Below, piece by piece: positions 20,951 to 54,815 of a stretch of 64,000 nucleotides of DNA. Both the position numbers and the translations under genes were made by a program. The DNA comes from Polytrichum commune (lineage: Eukaryota; Streptophyta; Polytrichopsida; Polytrichales; Polytrichaceae), in contig OX485808.1 of NCBI GenBank assembly GCA_950295325.1, forward strand, positions 18,868,527 through 18,932,526. Direction: 5' to 3'. Numbering within the stretch: the stretch's first letter is position 1; each line of letters begins with the position of its first letter. A model generated the notes under the pieces. That model did not search any database, was not told where the DNA came from, and worked only from the letters and a program-made list of their open reading frames with translations.

Positions 20951-22081
20951 TATACGAACGTACGTTCGTATAGCATAGGATGAATGAGTTTGGGTATAAA
21001 GGTTTATAAACGAGGAGTTTTTTCTGGAAACCAGTACAGAACTCGCATGTTGTATTAACGACCAAAATTTGTAAACCACAACTATCCCGAATTTCGAAGA
21101 GTATATCGGGACAAAACAGATAGCATGTTTACGAACGCACGTTCGTAAAACCACAGAAATCACTATCTGCAGGTGTACACCAGGAAATCATAGATGGCGT
21201 ACTTACGAACGCACGTTCGTAAATGAACAACCATTATATTTATAATTGCACATACATAAAAGCGTAGATGCCACATTTACGAACGCACGTTCGTAAATGA
21301 ACCACCATTCGCATTGCAAATGATTGATATACATGTGTCACAACGTCGACTCTGGTATACTTTGGTAGTTACGAACGCACGTTCGTAAACCCAAAACATT
21401 GCGTCTGATCCAACTGTGCTACTGATGGGACCTCATACTTACGAACGCGCGTTCGTAAAACCACAGCAACCCCCATCTGAATGTATAAACTAGGAAATCA
21501 TAGATGGCGTACTTACGAACGCACGTTCGTAAATGAACAACCATTATATTTATAATTGCACATACATAAAAACGTAGATGCCACATTTACGAACGCACGT
21601 TCGTAAATGAACCACCATTCGCATTGCAAATGATTGATATACATGTGTGTCACAACGTCGACTCTGGTATACTTTGGTAGTTACGAACGCACGTTCGTAA
21701 ACCCACAACATTGCGTCTGATCCAACTGTGCTACTGATGGGACCTCATACTTACGAACGCGCGTTCGTAAAACCACAGCAACCCCCATCTGAATGTATAC
21801 ACTTGGAAATCATAGATGGCGTACTTACGAACGCACGTTCGTAAATGAACAACCATTATATTTATAATTGTACATACATAAAAGTGTAGATGCCACATTT
21901 ACGAACGCACGTTCGTAAATGAACCACCATTCGCATTGCAAATGATTGATATACATATGTCACAACGTCGACTCAGGTATACTTTGGTAGTTACGAACGC
22001 ACGTTCGTAAACCCACATCATTCCGTCCGATCCAACTGTGCTAGTGATGGGACCTCATACTTACAAACGCGCGTTCGTAAG
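20951..22081. repeat. Palindrome array, family A (14 sites), in about 311-bp higher-order repeats
   Basis: Fourteen near-perfect palindromes, arm TTACGAACG, 2-nt spacer (CA, CG or TA), arm CGTTCGTAA. Sites start near 20,951, 21,128, 21,203, 21,277, 21,369, 21,439, 21,513, 21,587, 21,680, 21,752, 21,825, 21,898, 21,991 and 22,060. From 21,130 on, a block of about 311 bp with four sites is repeated three times. The sites are better conserved than the DNA between them. The array lies directly upstream of the DUF7869-type gene. Confidence 0.92.
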
Positions 22082-22604
22082 TATCCGGTATTTGCGGCGG
22101 TATATGCGGGATATGCTATGTCCTGTACCTGTGAGGAATACGGTTGGCGAACAGGAGGGTGGCTTGAGCGCGCTCCGACGACTCTCTAGAGCGCACACCT
22201 CCCGTCAGCCGCAGAAAAGAGCTCTCCCATGGGGGGAAAAGCTTTAAGTACCTCCCCCCGGTGGTTCAAAATCTCTTGGATGCTCTTTAAAAAGCGGATT
22301 CCCGCCCCCTACCTAGACCTACCAATATGCCATTCCCGCCATGCCATTCCCGCCATGACGAATTATATAAATAGCATTTTGTATGCAACATGTATTGCAT
22401 GCACGCACATTATATTGGAAAAAAATGTAAATCGGTCGCACACCTTAGATGTAACCAAGGTCTGAACCACCAAATCTATATATATATATACATATATATG
22501 TTTCATGATATTTAAATATTATGAATTTTGACATAGAAGATTAAATGATTTGCAACCAAGGTGTGAAGTCCAAGTTAATTAACAATTCGTATCTAATACA
22601 ATAA
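22082..22604. other. Non-coding DNA after the palindrome array
   Basis: A GC-richer patch (22,080-22,270) with no clear gene, then AT-rich DNA with a (TA)n run at 22,472-22,500. Confidence 0.4.
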
Positions 22605-22890
22605 TGGTATATTTGGTAATTGGAGTCATTTAGTTGATTTTGAGACTATTTAAGAACGCACTTTAAATTTCAAATATGGACTTGTAATTACAAACTAAAA
22701 CTTCCATACGTATAGTTTCCAAATCGGATACACCTTATATTAGACATAAAGGCATTGAAGGGAACGAAATTATGAAACATAGTTACATGAAAATATTTGC
22801 ACATGAAATGAGAAATAGACCCCAAAGGAAGGGAACATACCGAGAATTAATGGAACTTGAATCAATTCAATGGAAATACCATCCATAACT
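22605..22890 (+). repeat. Decayed CACTA-like end, phosphatase-side type, inverted
   Basis: Read left to right, this resembles the end at 46,231 read on the minus strand. Shared words include tttagttgattttgagactatttaag, gacataaaggcattgaa, and acatgaaaatatt followed by gaaatgagaaat. The outermost CACTA is degraded (caataatggtatatt). It is the remnant of another copy, in opposite orientation, inside the larger interval. Confidence 0.55.
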
Positions 22891-24401: not shown

Positions 24402-24605
24402 TTGTCATGCACTGCAATATGTGAGAGGGGTTTTCCTAAACAAAACCTAATAAAAAATCATCTACGTACTAGTTTGAAGTTAGAAACTTTAGAAGCTTTG
24501 ATGCACATTTCATGTGCAAATATTCCAGTTGAAAACATAAATTGGAATGCAGTGATGCTTGTTTGGAGAAACATGAAGGATAGGAGAATTCATCCACTTC
24601 TTTGA
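24402..24605 (+). pseudogene. hAT dimerisation-domain fragment
   Basis: A 67-codon open stretch with ERGFPKQNLIKNHLRTSLK, then LEALMHISC and WRNMKDRRI. This is the order seen near the C-terminus of many hAT transposases (the CERxFS...RIK...R..L block). There is no upstream transposase and no start codon of its own. The acccgtcc repeats on both sides (23,760-24,035 and 24,900-24,990) may be the ends of the decayed element that carried it. Confidence 0.5.
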
Positions 24606-25017: not shown

Positions 25018-25180
25018 CCACCACTGCCCCTACCCCCCTTCATCTACCCATATCTACCCATCCCATCCCATCCCCACCCATCTCCCCTCCCCATCCCCAC
25101 CCATCCCCACCCATCCCCCTCTCCTCATCCCTTCCCATCTCCCATGCTCATCCCTTCCCATCCCATCCATGTTAAGCGCG
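25018..25180. repeat. Low-complexity C-rich tract (CCCATCCCCAC-type)
   Basis: Simple repeats of ccatccc and ctaccc over about 160 bases on the + strand. ORFs through it are compositional. Confidence 0.8.
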
Positions 25181-26041: not shown

Positions 26042-26600
26042 ATTTACGAACGAGCGTTCGTAAATGTGAACACAACCTGCAAACCAGAGCTGTTGTGACC
26101 CCTCCCAGTCCATATGTTTACGAACGCACGTTCGTAAACACGCAACCCATCCTCTTTTCATGTGTTTACGAACGCGCGTTCGTAAACACCCACCCCTAAA
26201 CCCCTAAATTTTACGAACGCACGTTCGTAAACAAGGAATACATAATAGTCTGAGTATTTACGAACGCACGTTCGTAAGCACATAATCCCTGCCCATACCT
26301 CATTATACGAACGAGCATTCGTAAATGACTGCCTTGTGCCCGTCAAAAGATTTACAAACGTGCGTTCGTAAACACATGTTGAACAAATTGAAGATATAAA
26401 TCAGTATAAGTCACAACAGAACAAAATAATATAAACACATTGGTATTTAAAACACGCAAACATCTAAAGCCAAAAGAACAGCCTCTCAAACAGAACACAT
26501 TTACGAACGTACGTTCGTAAATATCTCAACAACTATTGTTCAAAATATTTGAAAATTGTAGAACTCTGTCTGCTAAATACGAACGCTCGCTCGTAAATAC
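26042..26600. repeat. Palindrome array, family A, about 47-bp phasing, upstream of the ParB-like gene
   Basis: Nine sites with arms ACGAACG and CGTTCGT and spacers AG, CA, CG, TG, TA or CT, some imperfect. ACGAACG cores start at 26,120, 26,168, 26,213, 26,260, 26,307 and 26,354, i.e. every 45-48 bases. Further sites lie at 26,045, 26,503 and 26,579. The array ends 29 bases before the splice acceptor (ttttgcag) that precedes the ATG at 26,629, so it lies in or before a leader intron. An extra self-complementary (TACG)n stretch is at 25,969-26,010. Confidence 0.9.
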
Positions 26601-26628
26601 GATCCTGACTACCTATGTTGTTTTGCAG

Positions 26629-29328
26629 ATGGCCATCCCTAACAGAAGCGCGATAGAGATGTTCGGACAGAAGTTGGAGAGTGTCCCAGAGTCAGTGACA
26701 GACGACAATGGGAATGACAATTATGTCCCACAGGAGGACTTCATGAAAGAGTGGACGGCGCTTCTAGAGATGTTAGAGGATGGAACATTCGTTATCCGCT
26801 TCGTCTACCAGCTCAATACCAACGACGATGAACCAGAGCAGTGGGTGCAGATGGCAACATGGGAGATAGATTCCGTGGAGGCACAGGGCAATTACGTAAT
26901 CCTCAACATGAAGTACAACAATGACCACGTCAACGTGTTGCTGGACTACTTGGCATACACCTTCTCCCACAACTACGCGCAGATGCATGTTAAAGAGGAG
27001 GGAAAGCGTTTCGACCTGCCAAAACTCTTCACAAGATATAGCCTAAGTCAACATTGGACAGCAAGGAAATTGACCGCTTTGTGCTTGAACATCTCCAAGA
27101 CCAACAGTGTTGTGTTGGAGGCCAACAAGAAGAAGAAGAGTCCCAAGAAACCAACGCAATCCGGTGTAGGCGGATCTAGAAGTGCTCCGCGGCCTGTTCC
27201 CACTGCGAGCAGATTGACCGAAGGTACGAGCAGACATTCCACTCCTTCGAAGAGAACGAGGGACAACATGGAGAAGTCTGGCGTAACTGAGGGCGCAGAG
27301 GTCAGTTCCCCGCCAGTCATGCCGACTCCTTTGCAGAAAGGAGAGGTACCGGGCGGTGCGAAGGCCACGCGCATCCTTCGAGATTTTAACAGTTACTCGA
27401 AGGACTGCTGGCCAATGGGTCGATTTTTCACATTCAACGTCGACTGCTTCAAATGTGAAAAATCTCCAAACAAGTGGGTAGTGAGGTTACGGGAGACCGG
27501 GGGTGTGAAGTGGCAGTTGAATAACCTCTACAACAACGTCAAGTGGGACATGCAAACAGTTTGTGTGATGCCAAAGGGTTTCACTACCCGTCCCACGGAG
27601 AGGGATTGGCCACGAATCCTCAACGGAGATTTCTGGATCATCGACGGACATCACAGCTTGGAGGCTGCTAAGATCGTTCTGAATGACGACGCCTTCCAAC
27701 ACGAGCTGAAGGGCGACTTGCGCTATTGGAAGTCGTTTGTGGTGTGGTCAGACGACTGGGAGAAGCTCCGCAAAATATCAACGTATTTGAATAGCGGAAA
27801 CAAGACGAAAGCTTTTGAGGCGTCCTGGGCTGCGAATATTGTTGCTGCAAGAGACGTCTGGGTGGCACACGGTAGCCCCCCTAAGGAGAGGGAGAACGCC
27901 AAGAAACCTTCTCCACAGTGGAAGGTAAGTTTATGAACGTGCGTTCGTAAACATCATCTCAATATTTCCTTTCTTGTTTGCATTTTACGAACGTGCGTTC
28001 GTATTTTACTCTTGACTGACATCCATTTTAATATGCAGGCGTTCTGCGACGCTATGGTAGACAAATTCTCCTCCATCGACATGAAGTCTACTTCAACCAA
28101 GTCGGTGCTGGAGTTGAAAGGTGAGCTCAGGCTCATATGCTGTACAACAGACACCTGGGATTTATGGACCCAGTTTTTTGACTCCCACACGTCGGGAGAT
28201 TTAACCAACCCCGACACGGAGGAGAAGTACAATGCCGTTGAGAACTTCGAGTGCCCCCCGCTGCTCAGGGAGTTCTTCAGACCCCTCCAAGGGCTAACAG
28301 AATCGGAGTTGAAGCGATGCGCCGTGCACGCTCTAATGAAAACAGAGGGAAGGAAACTTCCCTATCCAAAAATATTTTTGAAGAGACCCAAGCACAAGCC
28401 CGGGACATACTCCATCAAGGAGTGGTGCGAGCATCGAAAGCTGAAGACAGCAGCAATGAGGGAATTGAGCGCACTGGCACCTCAATACCAAATCTTCGAC
28501 GTCGACGGCGACGTGAAGTGGAATCATTGGAAGGTGTTCAAGCAAGCCTTTAATATTAGAGGCCCCTCAATGCGAAGTCTGGTCAGGGAGCACGCCGCAT
28601 CTTTGAAACTGAAGGGCAACAAACGGACTAAGAAGTCCGAGACGGATGCCCAGGAGGTGGGCCTTTATAAAAAAAATTTGGAGAGGAAGAGGACAGCAAC
28701 ATTCGAAGGAGTGGCGAGGTTTTGCACTGTCACCACAGGCCTAGAGAGGACCACATTCTCTAAGTGGGATGGTAACTTCACCAGGGCGGATGTTAGGGAG
28801 GACCGACGGGGATGCCCATTTGCCCTTATCGATTTCAGGAGCATCCCGGGTGCGTCGAGCCGCGGGACAAAGGACCTGCCATTCTACAACCCATTCATGG
28901 CCAAGTTCATGGAGTACAAATCTCCTGCCATGAGGGAGCCCCACGTTTGGCTATGGATTGTCGAGCACGAGAGGCTGTCGGAAATTCTGGAACTGTACGA
29001 GAAGACCATCAAGTTCGAGTACAGTATTTACCACAGCACCTATGTTCCCGCCAAGACAGAAGGGATCGTTGTAATCAACGAGGCCAGGGGAAACAAGCAG
29101 GTGGGAGCAGTCAGCCTCGTCTTCCTGACCTTCAACCAGCTAAGGGATGGGAGGGTCCCTATCAAGGCTAGCAATGTATTCAAGAAGATATACAACATCC
29201 CGCACCCACCTCCCAAAGATCTATTCCAGGAGACGTTATTTACTGTCATTCCCGCAGTTGAACTCAGGCTGGAATTCTACATATCCATTCTCCAGAGTTT
29301 GACAACCCATGGAGAGACGGTGTACTAA
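26629..29328 (+). CDS. ParB-like protein, exons 1 and 2, 3' part cut off by a gypsy insertion
   Basis: Exon 1 is 26,629-27,924 (432 codons). A 114-bp GT-AG intron follows, then exon 2 from 28,039. The frame is phase 0 across the junction. Residues about 330-345 read DFWIIDGHHSLEAAK. Beta-strand-like residues precede them and a conserved Asn region (YLNSGNK) follows. This is the form of the ParB/sulfiredoxin fold, whose signature is (I/V)xDGxxRxxA. ParB proteins bind short palindromes (parS). The motif's usual Arg is Ser here. The ORF stops at 29,326-29,328 only because the first three bases of an inserted LTR supply TAA. The gene probably resumes at about 42,270. The leader, the intron (27,933-28,004) and the distal exon all carry family A palindromes. 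The ParB assignment rests on motif form, not on a search. Confidence 0.65.
27933..28004. repeat. Two family A palindromes inside the 114-bp intron
   Basis: Cores GAACGTGCGTTCGTAAA at about 27,935 and TTTACGAACG, TG, CGTTCGTA at about 27,985. The first begins 9 bases after the splice donor. Together they fill much of the intron. Confidence 0.9.
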
Positions 29329-31565
29329 TGCACCCCGTGGGTCGTTCCCTTGCAACTTAGCTCAAGAAGACTCACGGTAAGACATCACGTAAATTTATAT
29401 TCGCTTGAGAATTACCGTGCCTCATTAATATGTTCGGTCCTCTAATTAATAATTCCTCTCTTCTCCTTATGATATGAATATATTATTAGAGTGAACACAA
29501 TCTCATTATCTTAAATTCTCATTCTCAATGTAAGGCATCATTGATTATAAGAATCCTTAGATTAGAGAAGGTTTCAAGAGGTGTAACAATATCCTTGATA
29601 GCAATATATTTTCTAATAAGTTATATGTGAGCAATTTAGAGCTCGTAGTACATAACATCAATCACACAATTGTTAATATTACTCTTATAGTGAGGAAGAA
29701 GATCTCATGTTCTTGAGTCTTCCTTTTTAAGCTCAAGTGTTACTACTTATAATATTATAACTTGATATATATATATATAGTAGTTTGAAATTTCATGAAC
29801 ACATCGTTGATTGTTTTGCAATATCACGTTTAACTTCAAAGTGTTTCTTGATGACGATAGTAATTATAACTCTCTTGAGTTTTTCTCAAGAGAGAGAACT
29901 CTTCTCTTCAATAGTTAATCCTTTACTTGTAATGACATCCAACAACTCACAAAGTATCTTAAGAGAATAAGCACTTTTACTACAAAGTGTTTCTTGATGA
30001 CGAGAAGTAAACCTATCTCTCTTGAGTTTTGCTCAAAAGAGAGAGAGAGATCTTCTCTTTAATGAATAATTCTTCAAATTGTAATGACATCCAACAACTC
30101 ACAAAGTATCTTAAAAGAAGTTCAATAACAATTGTAGTAAGTAGATTATCTTATATCAATATTACTTCATTCATATGTATTCAAACTTTGATGTGAATTA
30201 ATGTCTTCATCATTCTTGTCAATCACAAGTTCAACAATCAATATGTAGTATAATATGTATAATACTTATAAGTCAATTATGTAGTTTTCAATAATAAGCT
30301 CCTCCTCTTTTGAAGGAGTTTGTAATCGTTAAGTGGTTTTGCTTTAAACATGCATATAATTCTTCAATCATTCAATCACATGTATATTTATAATTCCCTT
30401 TTGAGGAGTTCAATGATAAGTTCCACTTTAGAGAGTCAATCGTAATTCCGACGTTCAAGTCAAATTGTCGTTACTACTCACAACAACTACTCTCAAAGTT
30501 CCATTGATACTCCAACTCTTCTTGAGCGCTTTGTTCTCACCCTCGCACTAATACTTTGAGTTCTTTCTCAAAGTGCTTACTCTTCTCTCGTTTAATAATC
30601 TCTTGAGTCACAAGTACCAATTGACAACTCGTAGTTCGACTTGAGAAAGAGAGAGAGAAAGGTCACACACATTTGTGGAAAAGATATTGTATTGCAAAAG
30701 AGCTCCGAGAGGAGAGATACAAAGAAACTCAAGTGTTTTTAACACTCAAATTTGTGATAACTTCGTTGTGTAGAAAATGAGGTATAAGTCTCATAATTTG
30801 CTTCCCTTATATAGTCTTTTCTCCCTATCCAAAATCTATACTAAGAGTGGTTGTTAACTTCCACTTCCATAGATACTAGCTATCTTTGATATATGTAGAT
30901 GCCATCTATCCTAAACGGTTATAACCGTTTTACTATTTGAATGTTCAAATTACTAAAATTCTACTATATCCTTGTCGTGGCTACATTGTAGTTCCTTTTG
31001 AGAATGTAATCAAATCTCCACCATTGCTTGATTCCAATGATTTGTATTTAAACATACTAGTAGAATCTACCCTTGGCCTATATGCTCATAATGCATCTTC
31101 ATAATGTATAAGAATCTAAAATTCTTACATAATTCATGCTTCTTCAAAATATTCCATAAACATGTCTCTTCGGATAATCATTTATCCTCAAAATCCTATA
31201 TTCTATCTATCTCCTAAAGGCTTCATAATGCTTTTTCAAAATAGTCCTTTAAAATCTTATACTTCTTTATGCCTCCTAATGCTCAATACTAACTCCTCCA
31301 TGCTAGTATAGTGTCCTCCTACTCAATTCCTAAGTTCTCCTTCATTAAAACGCTGATGGCCCTATACCCGTGGGTAAGGGACCCCATAACCGCGCGTAAG
31401 GTACGTATTTCCATGACAGTGACCCTATTACCGTGGCTGAGAGCTCTTCGGCATTCTTCTTCGGCGTTCTTCTTCGGCATTCTTCCTCTTCATCTCCAGG
31501 GTTGTTTTGATGTTGTTATGCACTCTAACTTGCCTCTTCCTCTCTTATAATGTTGTTGCTTAACA
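29326..31565 (-). repeat. 3' LTR of the gypsy element (2,240 bp)
   Basis: It matches the solo LTR at 52,466-54,683 in inverted orientation along its whole length, with small differences. On the minus strand it starts TGTTAAGCAACAAC and ends GGGTGCATTA, where the solo copy ends TGCATCA. A TATATAAG box lies at the place matching 53,218 of the solo copy. An internal tandem duplication of about 120 bp is at 29,840-30,120. Confidence 0.92.
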
Positions 31566-31584
31566 TTTTACCCCCTCCCAAGAG
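31566..31584 (-). other. Polypurine tract
   Basis: On the minus strand ctcttgggagggggtaaaa directly precedes the LTR's TGTTAAG. This is the position and composition expected of the plus-strand primer of an LTR retrotransposon, and it fixes the element's orientation. Confidence 0.85.
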
Positions 31585-31597
31585 GAAGATCCTGCCC

Positions 31598-34500
31598 TCA
31601 GGATCGCTTTGGGATTTTCATGCTTCCAGGGTCATATTGAGGGAGGTAGAGCAATGTGCGTGCATGTGGTGTTGATATGATCCTTTGCTCCAGTGTGCGT
31701 TTCCGATCTTCAAGGGCCCTGGTTATGTATCCATTTAGCTGTATTCGGTGAAAGCTTTGCGGAAAAGAGTCAGGGTATTTTCTGACAAGGTCTTGGTGTA
31801 GGTGACTGGCTTGATGTAGAAGTGAAGTGTCCTCTCCTGCTAATGTATCAAGTGCAGATAGGAAGTCGGGAAAGTTGGAATCGGCCATCTGTTGTATCTC
31901 CTTAACTAGGTCTAAGTCATATGGTTCAATCTGAGGCAGTGAGTTCCTGTTTTCTATGTTAGTATAGAACTCTTCATGATGCCTTTGAATGTGGTTAAGG
32001 GCCGAAATGCAAAACCTTGTGAGATAGAAATTTGGGTTTGTGGATGTTATTTCTGCGAGTCCCTTTGGTAAGACCAGATCCTTTAGAACCCACATAAAAA
32101 TTAGCAAATCCCTTGCAGCTGAGTTCGCTTTTGCCCATAATTCCTGAAATTGTTCCTTTGAGAGGTGACTCTTGTTCCAAATGTCGGGAAGGTTGCTCCA
32201 TCTCAAGATCATAGGTTTGAATGCTCTGTAGTACTGAAAAATACTAACTGGGGGTGGCAGATTTTGCATTGTTACTGTAATAGCATTGCCGAGATCTTCA
32301 ATGTTATCAAACCCTAAGAGACGCTCTAATGCGTAAGGATCTGGTATTTCTTCCTCTTGTTCAATCTTGGCTTGAAGTTCATCTCTCTCCGCTATTACCT
32401 GGTATAGTTCCGTTCTGAGAGTCCTAAGTGTGTGATGGATTTTGGTTGTGACTCTGTGTAGCAGTTTTTGTGCCGACATTTGTTCCTCTGTCGCAGGTTG
32501 TTTTTGAATCCATAAATCGAAGGCTTCGATTTTCGCAATTTCCATTACCCTGTCTTGATTTGAACGTGCTTGTGTATCTAATGTGTGAAGCTGTGTGCTG
32601 TAAGAGGCAAAGTCCTGCTGGAATGCTTGCAGGTTCGTTAAAATTTGGTGCCGAATGTCGGTGACAGTGCTGCGGAGTTGTTTTGATTTTTGCTGTAATT
32701 GATGTTCAGCGATGGCGGCTATCCTGGTTTGGTGTTGTCGGTAGTTTTGGATCTGGTCGCGGTGTTCCTGCTCCTGTCGTTGAAGGTTCTCCGCAAGCTG
32801 TTTGATGTTGACGATTTCGGCAGCATGTTGTGTTCGAAGAAGCGTTATCTCCTGGTGGTGTCGGTTCCTTTCAGCAGCTATCTGCTGGTCCATTTCGGTT
32901 GCATGCTGGCTTCGCAGGTTTTCTATTTGGGTTCGAAGTTCCTGATTTTCTCTTTGGCTGGCTGTAGCAATTCGGTGAGTGTGCCCTTCTGCTGCTTCGA
33001 TTTTTGCTTGGAGTTGCTGGTTCTCCTCAGTAAGCTGGTGGATTCGTTCCAGCGCTTTGGTGTAGAGGATTGATTTCTGCTTGTTGTCTTCGTCAATTAG
33101 TCTTTGTCGTTCTTCTGATGCTTTGTATTTGCTTTGTAGGAGACCGAATTCCTGTCTTAACAGGTTGTACTCTGCTTGAGAGGCGTTGTGGTGTGGTAAT
33201 TCGGCGTCGCGATGTAGTGCTGCTACTATCCCTGTTTGGGAATTTGGGGTTTCTTTTTGATTTTTGACTTTGTTAGACTGCTGCGCAGGTGCCGCTACAG
33301 ACTGGCTTCGGAGAGGCTCGGAGTTCGGAGGAGCGTGGTCCGTTACTTCGGCGATTTGCACTGTGTTTTCGGCGATGTTTTTTACTGCGCCTTTGGTTAC
33401 TTGTTGTAGATTCCACCTCTCTTCGGCAGCTGGGTTGTGCAGGCTTTTACTTCGGCGCCGAAGTTCCGTGTCTGTGGCTTGAGGAGTTTCGGCGAACTTG
33501 TTGGGCTCTTCGTTGTAGAGTGTTGATTTTTCTTTAGAGTTTCGGTGGTCGTTGCTGGTTTGATGCCGGCCTTGCTGATCGCCGAAGTTAGTCTGTAGAA
33601 GTTCCAATTTCTGTTCGAGCGGCTGGTTTACTCCTTTAGAGGTTTTGTCGATGCAGCTGATGCGGTCATTGTAACCGATTGCTGGCTCAATGTCGGCTTG
33701 GAGGATTTTTAGTTGAAGTTGGTCGCCTGTCTGAAGAGCTGCGGTGTTTGAAAGAGGCACAGTTGTGGTGTCCCTAAGACGATGTTCCTCTGTTGTACCA
33801 ATGTTTGAGTTCAATTCCCGCATCTCGGAATTTCCTGGGTTGGCCGCTTCTGAATCTGGAACAAATTTCTGTATGTTTTGTATCGCATTCTGATCTGCTT
33901 CGTTAAGTGGTTGCTCATGTTGTACCTTGTTGGATGCTAGTGATGTTTCTGTGATCAAATTCCCGAGGGATTGGGTAGCCTGATTGAGTTGCTGCCAAAT
34001 ACTTCTCAACTGTATTGGGTTGAACTGTAATGTGGTATCGTTTATTGTGCTTAGAAACACATTGTTGGTCGTTGTTGGTTCTATGACTGCACTCAAAGTT
34101 TTTGAAATGTCCCTTTCTTCCTTGAATGAGTCTGGTTTAACATAGGAGGGGTCTCCTAAATCAATAATAATGCTAGGAGTTGGTGTTGGTTTAGCCATGT
34201 CTGGTCCGGCTATGGCCACCAAAATCTGTGGAGGTTCTTTTGTTTTTGATGTTTCCCCTGTGGTGAGTTCCATTGGTTGGGTTTTCCTCTTTTTGGAAAT
34301 TGGTTCCTCTATTAATTCCGAAGGCATAAGAATGCCGGCCTCTATTTCTTGCTGGACTGTAAGCCGTCCTTCACTAATCAGAATCATGGTAAGTGGGGGT
34401 CCCACTAGTGTCCTCAAACTAGTAGTCTTATCCTTGTATAGTGCCTCTTTGAGAGTGATGAGTTCCGTTTTGATGTATGCATAGAACAATGCAGGCCAAT

Positions 34501-43453: not shown

Positions 43454-43466
43454 GAATACCTCTCAT

Positions 43467-43489
43467 TTTACGAACGCGCGTTCGTAACC
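43467..43489. repeat. Family A palindrome just after the stop codon
   Basis: ttttACGAACG, CG, CGTTCGTaac about 15 bases past the stop of the upstream ORF, in the presumed 3' UTR. Confidence 0.9.
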
Positions 43490-43749
43490 AACTAACCCCC
43501 TCGTTTGTTATTGGCGCTTCATGTCCGGCGGCATCAGGAGGCCCGCGCGAGCCTTTTCTGCGTGACACCCTAGGCCTGCCAGTTTTGTAGGACAATTTTG
43601 TAGGACACGGAAATTGTGATAGATTATCACGTGAGACATTTGTAAATATTCAACGGATTTAATATATGAGCAGTTTATCTCTGCATCGGATTTTCCCAAT
43701 TTTGTGCATCGTCTATTCAATCCCTGTGTTGTGAATGGTCTGGCGTCTC

Positions 43750-43932
43750 TATAAACTCTTGTATGCCCCTTCCTCAATCACGAACGCTCGTTCGTAAATG
43801 TGTGCGACCCAGTGTCCACCTCCTTCACGAACGAGCGTTCGTAGATTATGCCTGTAATCTCACTCACTCACGAACGTTCGTAAATGACGCGCGCCGCCAC
43901 CCGCAGCCCTCATTCACGAACGCGCGTTCGGA
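43750..43932 (+). promoter_or_regulatory. TATA box followed by four phased family A palindromes
   Basis: TATAAA at 43,750-43,755 is followed 30 bases later by palindrome cores starting at 43,780, 43,827, 43,870 and 43,916. That is a spacing of 43-47 bases, as in the array at 26,042-26,600. The first site falls where transcription would start, so the sites lie at the start of the phosphatase gene's leader. The third site has lost its spacer and part of one arm. Confidence 0.6.
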
Positions 43933-44053
43933 AGTGTGCCTCTGAGCGCATTCGCATTGCACTCTAAACCCTCGCTCCCTCGTCATTCCCTTAATGCAAT
44001 TTTAATTTATTTATTGGACCATATCATTGAACTAGTTAAATTGTTAATCACAG

Positions 44054-44821
44054 GACCCCACGAAGTTAAATCGCAACCCGTCGGCGAGTGGGCCTCAGAC
44101 CCGTCACAAGCCCTTCCTGGTTCTTGACCTTAACGGGGTGTTGTGTCACACCCAACACATCCCCAAGGTCCCCACCCGTTCCTTCCGCCAACCCGACGAG
44201 ATGGACTACGACGGCCAGCTCGACACTCTGATAAACTGCAAGGCCGTCCGCGCCCGTCCAGGCGTGCGGGACTTCCTTCGAGAGGTGCTCGACCTCTTTC
44301 ACGTGGTCGTCTGGAGCTCCATGATCATGGAGAACACGGAGGCCATCGTCGACTTCCTCTTTCGTGGCCTCCCGAGACCATGCCTCGTCCTCGGCCAAGA
44401 TGCGTGCGACGATCTAGTCGACGAGAAGGGGTTTCCCGTGCCCAAGTTCGGCGGTCGAGGAGGGGGACAACAGTTCCTCAAGGTCCTCCGGTCCAGGTTG
44501 TGGCAAGGCATCCCCATTCTCGAGGGGGTCCCCCACGGACATTGGCCTACGCCGGAGAACACCCTCCTCGTCGACGACAGCCCAACGAAGAGCGTCCTCA
44601 ATCCCCCGGGCACCGTCGTCTTCCCCGACACTTGGACCGGCGATAGGAAAGATACCTTTTTGGTCGATAAGCTAGCACCTTATCTTAGAATGCTAGTGCT
44701 CCACCCCGGGAGCATCCCCGATTTTGTTAGGTCCAACCCCATCGGCAACGCCGCGCTTAGTCCCCGCGACAATGTATATAAGAGCATCGTGCGGCTTGCA
44801 AAAATCAATAAATTGATTTGA
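44054..44821 (+). CDS. FCP1/NIF-like HAD phosphatase
   Basis: The frame opens after a splice-acceptor-like ttaatcacag at 44,053. There is no ATG before the first motif, so an upstream exon probably supplies the start. The first in-frame ATG is at 44,201. FLVLDLNGVLCHT is HAD motif I, with Asn at the second Asp place, as in the DxNG subfamily of plant FCP1-like proteins. VVVWSSMI is motif II and LLVDDSPTKSV is motif III with its Asp pair. FPDTWTGD follows. These enzymes remove phosphate from Ser/Thr in proteins such as the RNA polymerase II tail. With motif I altered, activity is uncertain. It lies between two CACTA-like ends and behind a palindrome-bearing leader, which suggests a host gene captured by the element. 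Confidence 0.75.
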   Translation, partial: DPTKLNRNPSASGPQTRHKPFLVLDLNGVLCHTQHIPKVPTRSFRQPDEMDYDGQLDTLINCKAVRARPGVRDFLREVLDLFHVVVWSSMIMENTEAIVDFLFRGLPRPCLVLGQDACDDLVDEKGFPVPKFGGRGGGQQFLKVLRSRLWQGIPILEGVPHGHWPTPENTLLVDDSPTKSVLNPPGTVVFPDTWTGDRKDTFLVDKLAPYLRMLVLHPGSIPDFVRSNPIGNAALSPRDNVYKSIVRLAKINKLI

Positions 44822-46184: not shown

Positions 46185-46231
46185 AAATAGTCTCAAAATC
46201 ATCTAAAAGTCTCTAATTAATGAATATAGTG
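46185..46231 (-). repeat. CACTA-like element end (phosphatase side), ending TAGTG
   Basis: On the minus strand it starts CACTATATTCATTAATTAGAGACTTTT. It shares the first 14 bases, bar one, with the ends at 17,211 and 56,571 and faces the end at 17,211. The bases outside (ttt) do not match those outside 17,211 (gaa), so a target duplication is not confirmed. Confidence 0.7.
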
Positions 46232-46235
46232 TTTT

Positions 46236-49200
46236 TGTTCAAAAAAGTGTGTCTCGGTCCCGAGACACCCTAGACAAGGGTAATGAGTGGGCTGACTTCA
46301 GTGTGAAATCAATTGGGTTAGAAGTCGATAAGGTTGTGATTAGGCCTGAATCTGATTTAAGTGTGAAGTGAACTTGGGTTATATGTTGCTTAGGTTGTGA
46401 TTATGCCTGAATCTGATTTAAGTGTGAAGTTGGTAAGGCTCATATAAGGCCTGAAATCAAATCTCTTAATGTTAGCTTTGTTCAAAATAGTGTGTCTCGG
46501 TCCCGAGACACCCTTGAGAAGGGTATTAAGTGGGCTGACTTAAGTGTGAAATCAATTGGGTTAGAAGTCGAAATGGTTGTGATTAGGCATGAATCTGTTT
46601 TAAGTGTGAAGTGAGGTTGGTTTATATGTTGCTTAGGTTGTGATTAGGCTTGAATCTGATTTAAGTGTGAAGTGAGTTTGGGTTGTATGTTAATAAGGTT
46701 GTGATTAGGCCTGAATCTGATTTAAGTGTGAAGTGAGTTTGGGTTATATGTAGCTTAGGTTGTGAGTAGGCCTAAAATCTGATTTAAGTTTGAAGTTGGT
46801 AAAGCTGATATAAGGCCTGAAATCAAATTTTTGAAAGTCACATTTGTTCAAAATAGTGTGTCTCGGTCCCGAGACACCCTTGAGAAGGGTATTAAGTGGG
46901 CTGACTTAAGTGTGAAATCGATTGGGTTAGTAGTCGATAAGGTTGTCAATAGGCCTGAATTTGATTTAAGTGTGAAGTGAGCTTGGGATATATGTTGCTT
47001 AGGTTGTGATTAGGCCTGAATCTGATTTAAGTGTGAATTTGGCAAGGCTCATATAAGGCCTGAAATCAAATCTGTTCATGTTAGCTTTATTCAAAATAGT
47101 GTGTCTCGGTCCCGAGACACCCTTGAGAAGGGTATTAAGTGGGCTGACTTAAGTGTGAAATCAATTGGGTTAGGAGTTGATAAGGTTGTGATGAGGCCTG
47201 AATCTGATATAAGTGTGAAGTGAGTTTTGGTTATATGTAGCTTAGGTTGTGATTAGGCCTGAATCTGATTTAAGTGTGAAGTTGGCAAGGCTCATATAAG
47301 GCCTGAAATCAAATCTTTTAAAGTTAGCTTTGTTCAAAAAAGTGTGTCTTGGTCCCGAGACACCCTTGAGAAGGGTATTAAGTGGGATGACTTAAGTGTG
47401 AAATCAATTGGGTTAGAAGTTGATAAGGTTGTGATGAGGCCTGAATCTGATTTAAGTGTGAAGTGAGCTTAGGTTCTATTTTGCTTACGTTGTGATTAGG
47501 CCTGAATCTGATTTAATTGTGAAGTTGGCAAGGCTCATATAAGGCCTGAAATCAAATCTTTTAAAGTTAGCTTTGTTCAAAAAGGTCTGTCTCGGTCCCG
47601 AGACACCCGAGGCAAGGGTCTTCAGTGGGCTGAATTCAGTGTGAAATCAATTGGTTTAGAAGTTGATAACGTTGTGATGAGGCCTGAATCTGATTTAAGT
47701 GTGAAGATGAGTTTGGGTTATATGTAGCTTAGGTTGTGACTAGGCCTGAATCTGATTTAAGTGTCAAGTTGGTCAAGCTCATATAAGGCCTGAAATCAAA
47801 TCTCTTCATGTTGGCTTTGTTCAAAATAGTATGTCTTGGTCCCGAGACACCCTTGGGAAGGGTATTAAGTGGGCTGATTTAAGTGTGAAATCGATTGGGT
47901 TAGAAGTCGATAAGGTTGTTAATAGGCATGAATCTGATTTAAGTGTGAAGTGAGCTTGGGATATATGTTGCTTAGGTTGTGATTAGGCTTGAATCTGATT
48001 TAAGTGTGAAGTGAGTTTGGGTTATATGTTTCTTAGGTTTTGATTAGGCCTGAAATGTAAATTGTTCAAAATAGTGTGTCTCGGCCCCGAGAGACCCTAG
48101 AGAAGGTCTTAACTGGGTTGAACAATATTTGTAGTCAGTTGGGTTAGGATGTTGGTAAGGTTTTTGTTAGGCCTGAAATCAACCTTAAGTGTGAATTGCA
48201 TTTGAATCTGATGTTGGTAATAATGTGATTAGGCCTAAAATCTGATTTAAGTGTGAAGTTGGTAAATCCGATATAAGGCCTGAAATCAAATTTTTGAAAG
48301 TCACATTTGTTCAAAATAGTGTGTCTCGGTCCCGAGACATCCCTGAGAAGGGTATTAAGTGGGCTGACTTAAGTGTGAAATCGATTGGGTTAGTAGTCGA
48401 TAAGGTTGTGATGAGGCCTGAATTTGATTTAAGTGTGAAGTGAGCTTGGGATATATGTTGCTTAGGTTGTGATTAGGCCTGAATCTGATTTAAGTGTGAA
48501 TTTGGCAAGGGTCATATAAGGCCTGAAATCAAATCTGTTCATGTTAGCTTTATTCAAAATAGTGTGTCTCGGTCCCGAGACACCCTTGAGAAGGGTATTA
48601 AGTGGGCTGACTTAAGTGTGAAATCAATTGGGTTAGGAGTTGATAAGGTTGTGATGATGCCTGAATCTGATATAAGTGTGAAGTGAGTTTTGGTTATATG
48701 TAGCTTAGGTTGTGATTAGGCCTGAATCTGATTTAAGTGTGAAGTTGGCAAGGCTCATATAAGGCCTGAAATCAAATCTTTTAAAGTTAGCTTTGTTCGA
48801 AAAAGTGTGTCTCTGTCCCGAGAAACCCGAGGCAAGGGTCTTCAGTGGGCTGAATTCAGTGTGAAATCAATTGGGTTAGAAGTTGATAACGTTGTGATGA
48901 GGCCTGAATCTGATTTAAGTGTGAAGATGAGTTTGGGTTATATGTAGGTTAGGTTGTGATTAGGCCTGAATTTGATTTAAGTGTCAAGTTGGTGAAGCTC
49001 ATATAAGGCCTGAAATCAAATCTCTTAATGTTAGCTTTGTTCAAAATAGTGTGTCTCGGTCCCGAGACACCCTTGAGAAGGGTATTAAGTGGGGTGACTT
49101 AAGTGTGAAATCGATTGGGTTAGAAGTCGATAAGGTTGTTAATAGGCCTGAATCTGATTTAAGTGTGAAGTGAGCTTGGGATATATGTTGCTTAGGTTGT

Positions 49201-50530
49201 GATTAGGCTTGAATCTGATTTAAGTGAGAAGTGAGTTTGGGTTATATGTTTCTTAGGTTTTGATTTGGCCTGAAATGTAAATTGTTCAAAATAGTGTGTC
49301 TCGGCCATGAGAGACCCTAGAGAAGGTCTGAACTGGGTTGAACAATATTTGTAGTCAGTTGGGTTAGGATGTTGGTAAGGTTTTTGTTAGGCCTGAAATC
49401 AACCTTAAGTGTGAATTGAATTTGAATCTGATGTTGGTAATAATGTGATTAGGCCTAAAATCTGATTTAAGTGTGAAGTTGGTAAATCCGATATAAGGCC
49501 TGAAATCAAATTTTTGAAAGTCACATTTGTTCAAAATAGTGTCTCTCGGTCCCGAGACACCCTAGACAAGGGTATTAAGTGGGATGACTTAAGTGTGAAA
49601 TCAATTGGGTTAGAAGTTGATAAGGTTGTGATGAGGCCTGAATCTGATTTAAGTGTGAAGTGAGCTTAGGTTCTATTTTGCTTACGTTGTGATTAGGCTT
49701 GAATCTGATTTAATTGTGAAGTTGGCAAGGGTCATATAAGGCCTGAAATCAAATCTTTAAAAGTTAGCTTTGTTCAAAAAAGTGTGTCTCGGTCCCGAGA
49801 CACCCGAGGCAAGGGTCTTCAGTGGGCTGAATTCAGCGTGAAATCAATTGGGTTAGAAGTTGCTTAGGTTGTGATTAGGCCTGAATCTGATTTAAGTGTG
49901 AAGTGAGTTTGGGTTATATGTAGCTTAGGTTGTGACTAGGCCTGAATCTGATTTAAGTGTGAAGTTGGTAAGCCTCATATAAGGCCTGAAATCAAATCTC
50001 TTAATGTTAGCTTTATTCAAAATAGTGTGTCTCGGTCCCGAGACACCCTTGAGACGGGTATTAAGTGTGCTGACTTAAGTGTGAAATCAATTGGGTTAGA
50101 AGTCGATAAGATTGTGATTAGGCATAAATCTGATTTAAGTGTGAAGTGAGTTTGGGTTGTATGTTGCATAGGTTGTGTGTAGGCCTGAAATCTGAATTGT
50201 TCAAAATAGTGTGTCTCGGTCCCCAGAGACCCTAGAGAAGGTCTTAACTGGGTTGAACTATGTTTGAAATCAGTTGGGTTAGGATGTTGGTAAGGTTTTT
50301 GTTAGTCCTGAAATCAACCTTAAGTGTGAAGTGAGTTTGAATATGATGTTGGCAATAATGTGATTAGGCCTAAAATCTGATTTAAGTGTGAAGGTGGCAA
50401 CGCTGATATAAGGCCTGAAATCAAATTCTTGAAAGTCACATTTGTTCAAAATAGTGTGTCTCGGTCCCGAGACACCCGAGACAAGGGTGTCTCGTTGGCT
50501 GAATTATGTGTGAAATCAGTTGGGTTAGGA
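46236..50530. repeat. Satellite array with family C palindromes at multiples of about 61 bp
   Basis: The basic monomer is about 61 bp (gtgattaggcctgaatctga through atgttgcttaggtt). One variant monomer carries a 20-bp palindrome: arm GTGTCTCGG, spacer TC, arm CCGAGACAC. Sites start near 46,249, 46,492, 46,855, 47,099, 47,343, 47,586, 47,828, 48,076, 48,320, 48,563, 48,807, 49,052, 49,296, 49,540, 49,785, 50,028, 50,210 and 50,456. Spacings are 242-248 bp, with one of 363 and one of 182, which are four, six and three monomers. A few sites are degenerate (48,076; 48,807; 49,296; 50,210). Confidence 0.93.
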
Positions 50531-50827
50531 TGTTGGTAAGGTTTTAGTTAGGCCAGAAATCAACCTTAATTGTGAAGTGAATTTGAATTGGATGTTGGTT
50601 ATAATGTGCTTAGAGTTGAAATCTGAAATTTCATTGTTGGTTAAATGATTATTGGATTGTAATTAGGCCTGAAATCTGATTTGAGTGTGAATTTAGTTTA
50701 TATGCCAAGATGTTGATTACACCAAAACAGATTATTTGACTTTGAGTTTAGTTTGGGTTGGTTGTTGGAAAGGCTGTGATTAGGCCTGACATCAAAATTG
50801 GAAAATTAAGCATTGGATTTTCCGCAG
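50531..50827. other. Diverged satellite running into the first recognisable exon
   Basis: Satellite wording (taggcctgaaatctgattt) decays gradually. The last bases, ttttccgcag, form a splice acceptor. The stretch is therefore probably intron. Confidence 0.55.
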
Positions 50828-52465
50828 AGTTTGGGAGCTACCGATCTTGAAACTTACGTTTCAAATGCTATTGAAGGCATCATGGACCATGATGAGCAGA
50901 ATGTTGGGGAAGAGGTAAGTACTCACGTAGTTACATAATGTGTGAATTAGTTGTACCTTATGCCATGCAGCTTTGTGTCTTAAATACATACCTGTGTTTT
51001 GTAGGTCGAGTGCCCCACCCCCCAGGACTCACCGGCACCGGCTTCACCGGCAGCGACTCAAGCTTCAAGAGAGACTGCAATTGATCTTGACAGTTCTGAT
51101 GAAGGTCAGGATGAGGATGAAGATGGGCTTGGAGATAAGGATACGTTTGACGGGGATGAAGATGAACTTAGATCCCGTCAGAAATTGAATTCCGTGGCCA
51201 TGATCTCTCAATTGAGAGTCAAACTTTTCAGTTCATCGAGGTTCAATATTCCTTTATGTAGAATGCTTGCCATGCCTATGGTGAGGCCAACACTCTCAAC
51301 TGATCTTGATAAATTGGAGCAGGAGTTTGTCCATGGGTATAGAGAGGGCTCCTCAGTTTCTTATGTGACATTAACAGATGAAGAAGGCAAAACACAAGAG
51401 GTGTCTGAAGCTGATAAGGCATCCTGGGGTCCCATTTGGAATTCAAAAAATGAAGAATTCAATTCCTATCTTCAGTCTGTTCCGGAGTTAGCCGGTTTCA
51501 AGGATTTGATGTTCTTTGTATGTGACGGTAACCATAGGCGTAAGGCATGGTTAAATCATATTGAAAGACTTTACAAAATAGATGAGGCCTGGCATTATAT
51601 GGTGGATAGCATCCTACTTGACACAAAAGGCAAAGTTGGGGTTGTTATGCAAGTGATGCATAACATCAACAAGTAAGTTTTGTTAATTAATTTGTATTTC
51701 TTTTTATGTAAAATGCTTCTTGTTATACCATTAATGTCATGTGCTAATCCGCCCTTTTTGATTGATAATTGCAGGCATACTGAAGACTCTCACGTCAAGA
51801 CCAACTTTGTTCACACCCTTTTTAGGATTCAAAAGTATGGTCTTATGCCAATCGAACATTATCAAAACATATTGACTCCATCAGAGATGAAGAGGTGCAA
51901 GAGAACTCAAAATGCCAAAAAAACTTGGTACACATTGAATCTTTAAGTATTCACGAACTTCATCTTCCGGGTATGATCTCTATAATATGTACTGCATTTT
52001 TTTAATCACTAACATATTGTCATTATCTAAAATCAAATGATCACCTAGGTTACAGTATACTTGGATGACTAACTAAGTCTACCCCTGTGCAGCATGAACT
52101 TGGACTTGCTGCAGATGAGGGTGTTTGACAACTTGTGGAGCAATCAGATGTAGAAGTGTCCGCCGCTGAAAAAACAACCGCTATGAAAGTTGCTACAAAG
52201 AAAAGAGCCAAGGCACTTCATAAGAAAATGTCGAAACTAGTTGCTCTGGCAAACCCGGACTTGACGGATGGATGGCTTCGAGAGGTATAAACTCTACTTT
52301 ACAAGCACATTTTTCAATCTTCATGTTCTTTAATGACCCCTGAGATTCTAATAAATAGCTATATGTTTCACAGATTGGACGTCACTATAGTCTTAACTCA
52401 ATTACACCCGAGCTCAATATGGAGAAATTGCAGTTGATCGTTATTGCAAAAGCATCGGCCGCTTC

Positions 52466-54683
52466 TGTTAAGCAACAACATTATAAGAGAGGAAGAGGCA
52501 AGTTAGAGTGCATAACAACATCAAAACAACCCTGGAGATGAAGAGGAAGAATGCCGAAGAAGAACGCCGAAGAAGAATGCCGAAGAGCTCTCGGCCACGG
52601 TAATAGGGTCACTGTCATGGAAATACGTACCTTACGCGCGGTTATGGGGTCCCTTACCCACGGGTATAGGGCCATCAGCGTTTTAATGAAGGAGAACTTA
52701 GGAATTGAGTAGGAGGACACTATACTAGCATGGAGGAGTTAGTATTGAGCATTAGGAGGCATAAAGAAGTATAAGATTTTAAAGGACTATTTTGAAAAAG
52801 CATTATGAAGCCTTTAGGAGATAGATAGAATATAGGATTTTGAGGATAAATGATTATCCGAAGAGACATGTTTATGGAATATTTTGAAGAAGCATGAATT
52901 ATGTAAGAATTTTAGATTCTTATACATTATGAAGATGCATTATGAGCATATAGGCCAAGGGTAGATTCTACTAGTATGTTTAAATACAAATCATTGGAAT
53001 CAAGCAATGGTGGAGATTTGATTACATTCTCAAAAGGAACTACAATGTAGCCACGACAAGGATATAGTAGAATTTTAGTAATTTGAACATTCAAATAGTA
53101 AAACGGTTATAACCGTTTAGGATAGATGGCATCTACATATATCAAAGATAGCTAGTATCTATGGAAGTGGAAGTTAACAACCACTCTTAGTATAGATTTT
53201 GGATAGGGAGAAAAGACTATATAAGGGAAGCAAATTATGAGACTTATACCTCATTTTCTACACAACGAAGTTATCACAAATTTGAGTGTTAAAAACACTT
53301 GAGTTTCTTTGTATCTCTCCTCTCGGAGCTCTTTTGCAATACAATATCTTTTCCACAAATGTGTGTGACCTTTCTCTCTCTCTTTCTCAAGTCGAACTAC
53401 GAGTTGTCAATTGGTACTTGTGACTCAAGAGATTATTAAACGAGAGAAGAGTAAGCACTTTGAGAAAGAACTCAAAGTATTAGTGCGAGGGTGAGAACAA
53501 AGCGCTCAAGAAGAGTTGGAGTATCAATGGAACTTTGAGAGTAGTTGTTGTGAGTAGTAACGACAATTTGACTTGAACGTCGGAATTACGATTGACTCTC
53601 TAAAGTGGAACTTATCATTGAACTCAAAAGGGAATTATAAATATACATGTGATTGAATAATTGAATAATTATATGCATGTTATGATTTAAGCAAAACAAC
53701 TTAACGATTGCAACTCCTTCAAAAGAGGAGGAGCTTATTATTGAAAACTACATAATTGACTTATAAGTATTATACATATTATACTACATATTGATTGTTG
53801 AACTTATGATTAACAAGAATGATGAAGACATTAATTCATATAAAAGTTTGAATACATATGAATGAAGTAATATTGATATAAGATAATCTACTTACTACAA
53901 TTGTTATTGAAGCTTCTTACTTTAAGATTCTTTGTGAGTTGTTGGATGTCATTACAATTTGAAGGATTATCTATTCAAGAGAAGATCTCTATCTCTCTTG
54001 AGCAAAACTCAAGAGAAATAGGTTTATCTTCTCGTCATCAAGAAACACTTTGTAGTAAAAGTGCTTATTCTCTTAAGATACTTTGTGAGTTGTTGGATGT
54101 CATTAACAATCAAAGAGGAGTTCTTTCTCTTGAATAAACCTCAAGAAAGTTATAATTATTCTTGTCATTAAAACACTTTGAATGTTAAACGTGACATTGC
54201 AAAACAATCAATGATGTGTTCACAAAATTATAACTACTATATGCATACATGTCAAGTTACAATATTATAAGTAGTAACACTTGAGCTTAAAAAGGAAGAC
54301 TCAAGAATATTAGATCTTCCTCATCATTATAAGATTACTATCATTTGTGTGATTAATGTTTATGAACTACTAACATTAAGGATTCATACAATTTACTGAA
54401 CACTATATTATCAAGGATATTGTTACACCTCTTGAAGCTTTCTTTAAATCTAATGGTTCTTATTATCAATGATGCCTTACATTGAGAGTAAGAATTAAGA
54501 TAATGAGATTGTGTTCACTCCAATAATTATATTCATATCATAAGGAGAAGAGAGGGATTATTAATTAGAGACCGAACATATTAATGAGGCACGGTAGTTC
54601 TCAAGCGAATATAAATTTACGTGATGTCTCACCGTGAGTCTTCTTGAGCTAAATTGTAAGGGAACGACCCACGGGGTGCATCA
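52466..54683 (+). mobile_element. Solo LTR of the gypsy family, with GCTTC target duplication
   Basis: 2,218 bp, TGTTAAGC...TGCATCA, flanked by gcttc at 52,461-52,465 and 54,684-54,688. It is the inverted counterpart of 29,326-31,565. Removing it and one gcttc restores an open frame (AAS-KVKWLEYLNSS), so it landed in an exon. A TATATAAG box at 53,218-53,225 is the likely LTR promoter. Solo LTRs arise by recombination between the two LTRs of a full element. Confidence 0.95.
53218..53225 (+). promoter_or_regulatory. LTR TATA box
   Basis: TATATAAG inside the solo LTR, followed by ggaagcaaattatgagac. It is conserved in the inverted copy near 30,816. Confidence 0.5.
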
Positions 54684-54815
54684 GCTTCTAAGGTTAAATG
54701 GTTGGAATATTTAAACTCCTCTGCATCTACACGTGAGGCCCGCAAACTGCCCCGTAAGCCCACCAACGAGGAGAAACTGGGTGCATTTCTAGCTAAGGCG
54801 TGCTTTTGGGCCGGA

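What the first reader, a model, noticed from the sequence alone, without database searches (positions are those of the whole stretch)
20951..54815. ParB-like proteins encoded beside their own palindrome families: a possible partition- or anti-silencing-like system in giant plant transposons
Two unrelated-looking loci each encode a protein with the ParB-type DGxxRxxA signature (IDGHHSLEAA at about 27,640; CDGNHRRKAW at about 51,520). Each is embedded in a different family of 20-22-bp palindromes, A at the first and C at the second. ParB proteins bind palindromic parS sites, and in VANDAL transposons VANC proteins bind element-specific short motifs to remove silencing. The sequence shows the pairing; the recognition is my inference.
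Basis: partly seen in the sequence, partly recalled or inferred. Interest (0 to 1): 0.92.

Follow-up and report, generated by a model that had tools for sequence, protein, structure and literature searches.

The report
Plant transposons with private palindrome codes
Large plant DNA transposons carry a gene for a protein with the fold of bacterial ParB, a DNA-binding protein, and arrays of a palindrome that differs between transposon lineages in step with that protein, which suggests a self-made switch that each lineage uses on its own DNA.

Summary
The first protein (ParB1, 26629-29325) has a ParB/Srx domain by structure prediction. It lies in a DNA transposon (element A, 17209-29325 + 42242-46233) with a DUF7869 presumed transposase and a phosphatase-like gene. 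Palindrome A is TTTACGAACG-NN-CGTTCGTAAA. Related elements keep the architecture but change palindrome with the diverged protein: B (42% identical) TTTACGGACG, D (34%) GTTTGGGTCG. ParB2 is not shown to be ParB-fold but goes with GTGTCTCGG-NN-CCGAGACAC, of similar geometry. Genome counts are 3737, 1310, 9731 and 997, against 0 in each reversed control. In the loci and lists sampled each gene goes with its own palindrome; 26 wrong-type checks found none, though element B also holds two A-type sites. Sites avoid coding sequence (0 of 127 A, 0 of 116 D) and sit upstream of genes and in ParB1's intron, as VANC motifs do in VANDAL transposons. Best reading: ParB1 is an element-specific regulator, probably activator or anti-silencer, convergent with VANC. 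Binding and function are inferred; partition is not supported.

The parts
17209..17250 (+). Left terminal inverted repeat of element A (AACACTATATTCGTTAAT...)
   Evidence: a second copy has a 4-bp direct repeat ATGA at its ends (one copy only); the window copy shows no such repeat
17614..20775 (-). DUF7869 gene of element A, presumed transposase (ORFs 17614-19119 and 19165-20775)
   Evidence: Pfam PF25273, E 1.6e-39; role as transposase inferred
20782..22078 (.). Palindrome A cluster 1, largely in a 310-bp tandem repeat just upstream of the DUF7869 gene
26046..26594 (.). Palindrome A cluster 2, upstream of the ParB1 start; the leader ends in a splice-acceptor-like TGCAG directly before ATG
26629..27924 (+). 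ParB1 exon 1: N-terminal beta-rich domain (weak PH/FERM-F3-like match), disordered linker, ParB/Srx domain (residues about 266-394)
   Evidence: dN/dS 0.07-0.12 in 4 comparisons
27925..28038 (+). ParB1 intron 1 (GT..AG) with two palindrome A sites (27933 with one mismatch, 27987)
   Evidence: intron inferred from reading frames and copies
28039..29325 (+). ParB1 exon 2, conserved region with no significant family match; cut in this copy by the retroelement at 29325
29326..42241 (-). Ty3/gypsy-like fragment with one recognisable LTR (to about 31565), in element A with about 490 bp of the element missing; not part of the system
42997..43931 (.). Palindrome A cluster 3, upstream of the phosphatase-like gene
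44048..44818 (+). NIF / CTD-phosphatase-like gene carried by element A; 63% identical protein in element B
   Evidence: Pfam PF03031, E 1.8e-15
46192..46233 (-). Right terminal inverted repeat of element A
46234..50600 (.). Left array of palindrome C in 243-bp tandem repeats
51005..51673 (+). ParB2 exon 1 with CDGNHRRKAW; further exons inferred downstream by eye
   Evidence: dN/dS 0.14-0.26 in 18 of 21 comparisons
52466..54684 (+). Solo LTR of the same gypsy family inserted in the ParB2 region; not part of the system
   Evidence: L010, L011 and L013 run from 52466 straight to 54684
54876..56568 (.). Right array of palindrome C
56569..60616 (-). Start of element B: left TIR, then DUF7869 gene 57449-60616 (78-82% identical protein to A)
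60870..61815 (.). Palindrome B cluster (TTTACGGACG-NN-CGTCCGTAAA), with one A-type site just before it at 60686; the ParB of element B lies beyond the window (L042)

Best explanation
ParB1 is a transposon-encoded DNA-binding regulator with a ParB/Srx domain. It recognises, probably as a dimer, a 22-bp two-fold-symmetric site (two 10-bp arms around a free 2-bp spacer) that its own element repeats in non-coding DNA beside its genes: upstream of the presumed transposase, in the ParB1 leader and intron, and upstream of the phosphatase-like gene. By marking its own element in this way it most likely activates those genes or protects them from silencing, as VANC proteins do for VANDAL transposons. 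Diverging elements changed protein and palindrome together. Shown by computation: the fold, the pairing in the loci and lists sampled, site placement, symmetry and purifying selection. Inferred: binding, dimerisation, and activation or anti-silencing. Whether ParB2 with palindrome C is a second, unrelated instance of the same scheme is open.
Against: No binding, expression or methylation data. The signature arginine of ParB is replaced (DGQHS), so CTP binding is doubtful. No DNA-binding domain was identified; exon 2 has no significant family match (best Pfam E 0.03; one of 30 members weakly matches HTH_70 at E 0.094). Privacy is imperfect: element B holds two A-type sites, one about 60 bp before its ParB start, and mixed half-sites lie beside ParB-B genes, so A and B may cross-react. 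ParB2's fold is unconfirmed and hhalign finds no homology to ParB1 beyond the DGxH motif (E 0.11, probability 0.5%). One A cluster (641-646 kb) and one C cluster (468-472 kb) on C1 have no such gene in the stretches read, one B cluster (25.98 Mb) has none among the 92 genes listed, and 4 of 30 ParB2 loci lack exact C palindromes in the stretch held. Three ParB2 pairs have dN/dS 0.33-0.46 and two of six loci compared carry a stop. A palindrome guessed by back-translating a metagenome protein (P0209) has 0 matches here.
Confidence: 0.6

Rival explanations
1. The palindromes are binding sites of the DUF7869 transposase, or of its accessory complex, used to cut or pair the element, and ParB1 has another job.
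For: The DUF7869 gene sits beside the largest palindrome cluster and diverges along with the palindromes. An element at C1 641-646 kb keeps the palindromes and a scrap of the DUF7869 gene with no ParB seen. One ParB2 locus (L023) has a DUF7869 piece beside it.
Against: Sites are not at the ends: the first lies 3.6 kb inside and the last (one mismatch) about 1 kb inside element A. They sit beside genes and inside a ParB1 intron. The DUF7869 protein is 78-82% identical between A and B although the palindrome changed. In the one ParB2 copy read over 20 kb no DUF7869 gene was found, yet it has palindromes of the same geometry.
Confidence: 0.15
2. ParB1 is an autorepressor: it binds its own promoter and intron and the transposase promoter to limit copy number.
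For: Same anatomy; site density near the ParB1 leader fits autoregulation.
Against: Sites are also upstream of the phosphatase-like gene and many lie in tandem arrays, as in VANC targets. Lineage-specific codes are explained more simply by escape from a host than by self-limitation. This is a weak argument.
Confidence: 0.15
3. A ParB-parS-like partition or tethering system for an episomal or replicating stage of the element.
For: ParB fold and palindromic sites.
Against: Copies are dispersed chromosomal insertions. No ParA-like gene was noticed among the genes identified (no dedicated search). The canonical ParB arginine motif is changed. Sites lie beside several genes, not in one centromere-like block.
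Confidence: 0.04
4. The palindromes are only tandem-repeat by-products (satellite spread) without a reader.
For: Many sites are in tandem arrays.
Against: The 2-bp spacer (0.3-0.7 bit in A, C and D) and the flanks vary while the outer arm bases, which were not used to pick sites, are kept; isolated sites occur in introns and leaders with poorly alignable surroundings; mixed half-sites are rare; none in coding DNA.
Confidence: 0.04

Closest known systems
VANC proteins of VANDAL transposons in Arabidopsis (Nat Commun 2017, PMC5735166, passages seen; Sasaki et al. 2023, PMC10398659, abstract and outline only)
   Same: Transposon-encoded protein beside dense, lineage-specific short motif arrays in non-coding DNA, including introns and the region upstream of the transposase gene; tandem repeats; related proteins with different targets.
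   Different: Here the protein has a ParB/Srx domain and the presumed transposase is DUF7869. The motif is a 20-22-bp palindrome with a free 2-bp spacer, whereas VANC21 reads the 9-base YAGTATTAY arrayed in one orientation. No binding or demethylation has been shown.
Bacterial ParB and Noc
   Same: ParB/Srx domain fold; palindromic sites clustered near the gene.
   Different: DGQHS in place of the arginine-rich GERRxRA motif (recalled); extra N-terminal domain and a large exon 2 of unknown fold; eukaryotic transposon; no ParA seen; palindromes differ from parS (parS consensus recalled, not looked up).
Plant and animal sulfiredoxin
   Different: Transposon gene paired with DNA palindromes; no sign of a peroxiredoxin-repair role.
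TIGR-Tas (PMC12045711; search listing only)
   Same: Came up in searches for ParB with transposon and plant or eukaryote terms; no closer resemblance was checked.
   Different: Its abstract describes an RNA-guided system of phages and parasitic bacteria; no guide RNA array was noticed here (not searched for).

Membership tests
ParB | ParB/Srx N-terminal domain fold | tested here: met
ParB | GERRxRA-type arginine CTP motif | tested here: not met
   Aligned ParB1 family reads mostly IDGQHS.EA; G340, H342 and A346 are nearly invariant but there is no arginine pair; motif definition recalled
ParB | Helix-turn-helix that reads parS, and a C-terminal dimer domain | tested here: inconclusive
   Exon 2 has no significant Pfam or PDB match; one of 30 members weakly matches HTH_70 (E 0.094); not folded, no jobs left
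ParB | ParA partner and parS consensus | not tested
   No ParA was noticed among translated ORFs; no dedicated search; palindromes differ from the recalled parS
ParB (second protein, ParB2) | ParB/Srx fold | tested here: inconclusive
   Exon-1 model pLDDT 57; no ParB match except Noc at E 0.68
VANC/VANDAL | Element-specific motif arrays in introns and upstream of element genes | tested here: met
   VANDAL description
VANC/VANDAL | Mutator-type (MULE) transposase beside the regulator (recalled) | tested here: not met
   Element A carries DUF7869; no other transposase domain hit in the element A ORFs scanned
VANC/VANDAL | Sequence homology to VANC | not tested
   No VANC sequence was compared directly; ParB1 exon 1 has no Pfam hit
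VANC/VANDAL | Regulator binds the motif and removes methylation or silencing | not testable with these tools
   Needs EMSA or DAP-seq and bisulfite sequencing
Sulfiredoxin | Srx fold | tested here: met
   Rows 9, 17, 19, 20 and others
Sulfiredoxin | Catalytic cysteine motif for peroxiredoxin repair | tested here: not met
   The signature position reads DGQHS, without the GCHR motif (recalled), in the aligned ParB1 family

The most novel reading that the evidence does not exclude
A eukaryotic ParB-parS-like machine: ParB1 loads at its own palindrome and spreads along the element as a clamp, using CTP or another ligand, to keep silencing factors off. Its code has been rewritten several times, and an apparently unrelated DGxH protein (ParB2) has converged on nearly the same palindrome geometry (9 or 10 bp arms, 2-bp spacer). 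The same genome would then hold about four transposon address codes that could be tested in one plant.
Probability: 0.15. Interest if true: 0.95.

Novelty: new variant of a known kind. Interest (0 to 1): 0.82.

Why it matters
It would be a second, independent case of transposons carrying sequence-specific self-recognition, built on a protein fold best known from bacterial chromosome segregation. Because one genome holds lineages with palindromes that differ at one base per half-site (A, B) or almost wholly (D), it is a natural laboratory for how protein-DNA codes change, and it may give new programmable tools for opening silent plant chromatin.

Tried and rejected
Rejected: the 2.2-kb inverted repeat as a giant-transposon TIR (it is an LTR); AAACGGTTATAACCGTTT as a ParB palindrome (it lies in the LTR); partition (see rivals).

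Led nowhere: PDB sequence searches with exon 1 of each protein and with the exon 2 alignment; Pfam on both ParB-like proteins and on the 30 members of the exon 2 alignment; profile comparison of ParB1 with ParB2; fold search with the poor ParB2 model. NCBIfam and PHROGs were never run (searches failed) and PADLOC was not tried. In the viral collection ParB1, ParB2 and exon 2 gave no confirmed relative; in the prokaryote collection only ParB1 exon 1 was tried, with none. A methyltransferase reading of exons 2-3, from a VFGG[TS]KF.YAA stretch resembling motif I (recalled), found no profile support and is kept only as a lead. A further palindrome guessed from the intron read-through of P0209 has no match in this genome. 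CpG decay in near-sites was not informative. A paper search to place DUF7869 elements among 4-bp-duplication superfamilies and one on the likely host did not help. Paper searches for ParB with transposon and plant, moss or eukaryote terms, for DUF7869, and for palindromic DNA-transposon sites with anti-silencing and bryophyte terms listed nothing that from titles and abstract starts describes this system; the library lacks most subscription journals. None of the ten papers listed contains the term DUF7869.

Limits: the site logos select sites by their core, so core conservation there is by construction; spacer, outer arm bases and flanks are not. Pairing was tested on fetched loci (8 of 40 ParB-A, 30 of 40 ParB2 and 12 of 91 ParB-D matches listed) and on the first sites listed on contig C1; gene lists are capped. 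In one search three ParB-A and two ParB-D genes had been found through palindromes, so the independent own-type count is 11 of 13 (A 1 of 1, B 5 of 5, ParB2 4 of 6, D 1 of 1); the D list was abridged. Site counts from paralogous copies are not independent. On C1 four smaller D groups (2 to 9 sites) and single A and C sites were not examined. first gave 12 D sites in coding because my query ran into the intron; one search corrected this to 0 of 116. Synonymous sites are near saturation in three of the four ParB1 comparisons.
Full report
Setting. All counts below are for that genome. I call the first protein ParB1 and the second ParB2 for convenience; only ParB1 is shown to have the ParB fold.

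What is in the window. Comparison with a 99% identical copy on C1 shows that element A runs from 17209 to 29325 and again from 42242 to 46233, with inverted ends AACACTATATTC. The other copy has a 4-bp direct repeat ATGA at its ends; the window copy has none. The gap is a Ty3/gypsy-like fragment with one recognisable LTR. The second half of the long inverted repeat, 52466-54684, is a solo LTR: it starts TG, ends CA, has a 5-bp duplication GCTTC, and is absent from L010, L011 and L013, where the flanking DNA is continuous. Element A carries a DUF7869 gene (presumed transposase), ParB1 in at least two exons, and an NIF/CTD-phosphatase-like gene. Element B begins at 56569 with the same left end and, with the next 10 kb of the contig, shows the same order: DUF7869 gene, palindromes, ParB, phosphatase-like gene. 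Between A and B lies element C with ParB2 and its repeats; no DUF7869 gene was found in it or in 20 kb around another copy, and its transposase, if any, is unknown.

Palindromes. The site is two arms of 9-10 bp around a 2-bp spacer that carries little information in A, C and D (0.3-0.7 bit; B, with 25 sites from one element, 1.1-1.4). Flanks fall to near zero beyond the arms in A and D and are somewhat higher in C and B, where sites share repeat units. A is TTTACGAACG, B TTTACGGACG, D GTTTGGGTCG, C GTGTCTCGG. With 9-bp arms the genome holds 3737 A, 1310 B, 9731 D and 997 C sites, each against 0 for the pattern read backwards. Sites with one A half and one B half number 60, and several of these lie beside ParB-B genes, so the two halves mostly change together.

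Pairing. Starting from genes, window copies included: 8 of 8 ParB-A loci hold A palindromes, 26 of 30 ParB2 loci hold C, 12 of 12 ParB-D loci hold D. Starting from palindrome lists, which were not chosen by gene: of multi-site clusters examined on C1, A 4 of 5, D 3 of 3 large ones, C 4 of 5 and B 5 of 6 (one of the five genes is full of stops) have the matching gene. For the misses at C1 641-646 kb and 468-472 kb I read most of the cluster and its surroundings; the first is an A-like element with a phosphatase-like gene (65%) and a scrap of the DUF7869 gene, possibly a derivative that lost ParB. The third miss, a B cluster at 25.98 Mb, was not read. Cross-check: 0 of 26 gene-by-wrong-type combinations had a site within 3 kb; no ParB-B gene fell in the range of another list. 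Against strict privacy, element B itself holds two A-type sites, one about 60 bp before its ParB start.

Code change. A and B differ by one base per half-site; their DUF7869 proteins are 78-82% identical but ParB exon 1 only 42% and exon 2 53-54%. A and D differ at most positions; DUF7869 60-71% over the part read, ParB exon 1 34%, exon 2 35-38%. Public proteins read through introns agree: relatives near A show peptides that can encode the A palindrome, P0020 the B type, P0026-P0028 the D type; these are back-readings of peptides, not DNA. A further type guessed from P0209 was not found here.

Placement and selection. Sites lie upstream of the DUF7869 gene, in the leader and first intron of ParB1, and upstream of the phosphatase-like gene. 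None of 127 A sites (8 loci), 116 D sites (12 loci) or 20 B sites (one element) is in coding sequence. Upstream of ParB1, DNA outside the sites is 78% identical in the one distant A pair compared, against 71% for shuffled DNA, yet both hold sites. dN/dS is 0.07-0.12 for ParB1 exon 1 (synonymous sites near saturation in three of four comparisons). For ParB2 it is 0.14-0.26 in 18 of 21 comparisons and 0.33-0.46 in three closer pairs; two of the six loci compared carry a stop. So both proteins have been kept under selection through many copies, although both window copies are interrupted.

Mechanism. Transposon-encoded VANC proteins bind short motifs arrayed in introns and upstream of element genes, which changed with the protein (PMC5735166, passages). 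The anatomy here is the same with different parts. I infer that ParB1 reads the palindrome and that the purpose is expression or anti-silencing of the element; repression cannot be excluded. Transposase binding is less likely because sites lie about 1 kb (right) and 3.6 kb (left) or more inside the ends. Partition is unlikely because copies are dispersed chromosomal insertions.

Novelty. No paper in the held library, by title and abstract start, described it in the searches run. Relatives of ParB1 and ParB2 carry no informative name in the listings (one search lists 120 of 231). The kind (transposon self-recognition by lineage-specific motifs) is known; the protein fold, the palindromic code with free spacer, and several codes in one genome are new to me.

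Noticed in passing
window 44048-44818; L042; L057: A phosphatase-like (NIF domain) gene is carried by elements A and B and by an A-like element at C1 645.9-650.4 kb, each time with palindromes upstream or nearby; its role for the transposon is unknown.
   Followed up: partly
window 28039-29325 and B element exons 2-3 (L042): The long conserved region after the ParB domain ends, in copies not cut by the retroelement, in VFGG[TS]KF.YAA and, after an inferred intron in element B, LGLQVNS, which resembles motif I of amino-methyltransferases (recalled); no profile support.
   Followed up: partly
C1 641-646 kb (L057, L064, L065): An element with many A palindromes, a DUF7869 scrap and a phosphatase-like gene but no ParB found: perhaps a non-autonomous derivative that keeps the code.
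   Followed up: partly
C1 468.6-471.9 kb (L063): C palindromes with a TA spacer in an array with spacings near 139 bp and its multiples, and no ParB2 in 8.7 kb.
   Followed up: partly
window 60686 and L042 (about 4.6 kb in): Two A-type palindromes sit among the B-type ones in element B, one about 60 bp before its ParB start.
   Followed up: partly
window 30913 and 53101: A different palindrome, AAACGGTTATAACCGTTT, sits in the gypsy LTR; 129 exact copies genome-wide against 1 reversed control.
   Followed up: partly
window 31604-34762 minus: The gypsy fragment has an ORF of about 1,050 residues, coiled-coil-like by eye, downstream of its polymerase and integrase region, an unusual layout.
   Followed up: no
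reverse complement of L043+L044, joined coordinates 15780-16292, minus strand: Near a ParB2 copy an ORF resembles a small enzyme, possibly a methyltransferase, by eye only.
   Followed up: no
window 6285-6952: A G-rich minisatellite with 12-, 46- and 264-bp periods lies beside a hAT transposase gene (2892-6140).
   Followed up: no
window 63037-63068: A short run of the plant-telomere-like unit ACCCTAA (4.4 copies).
   Followed up: no
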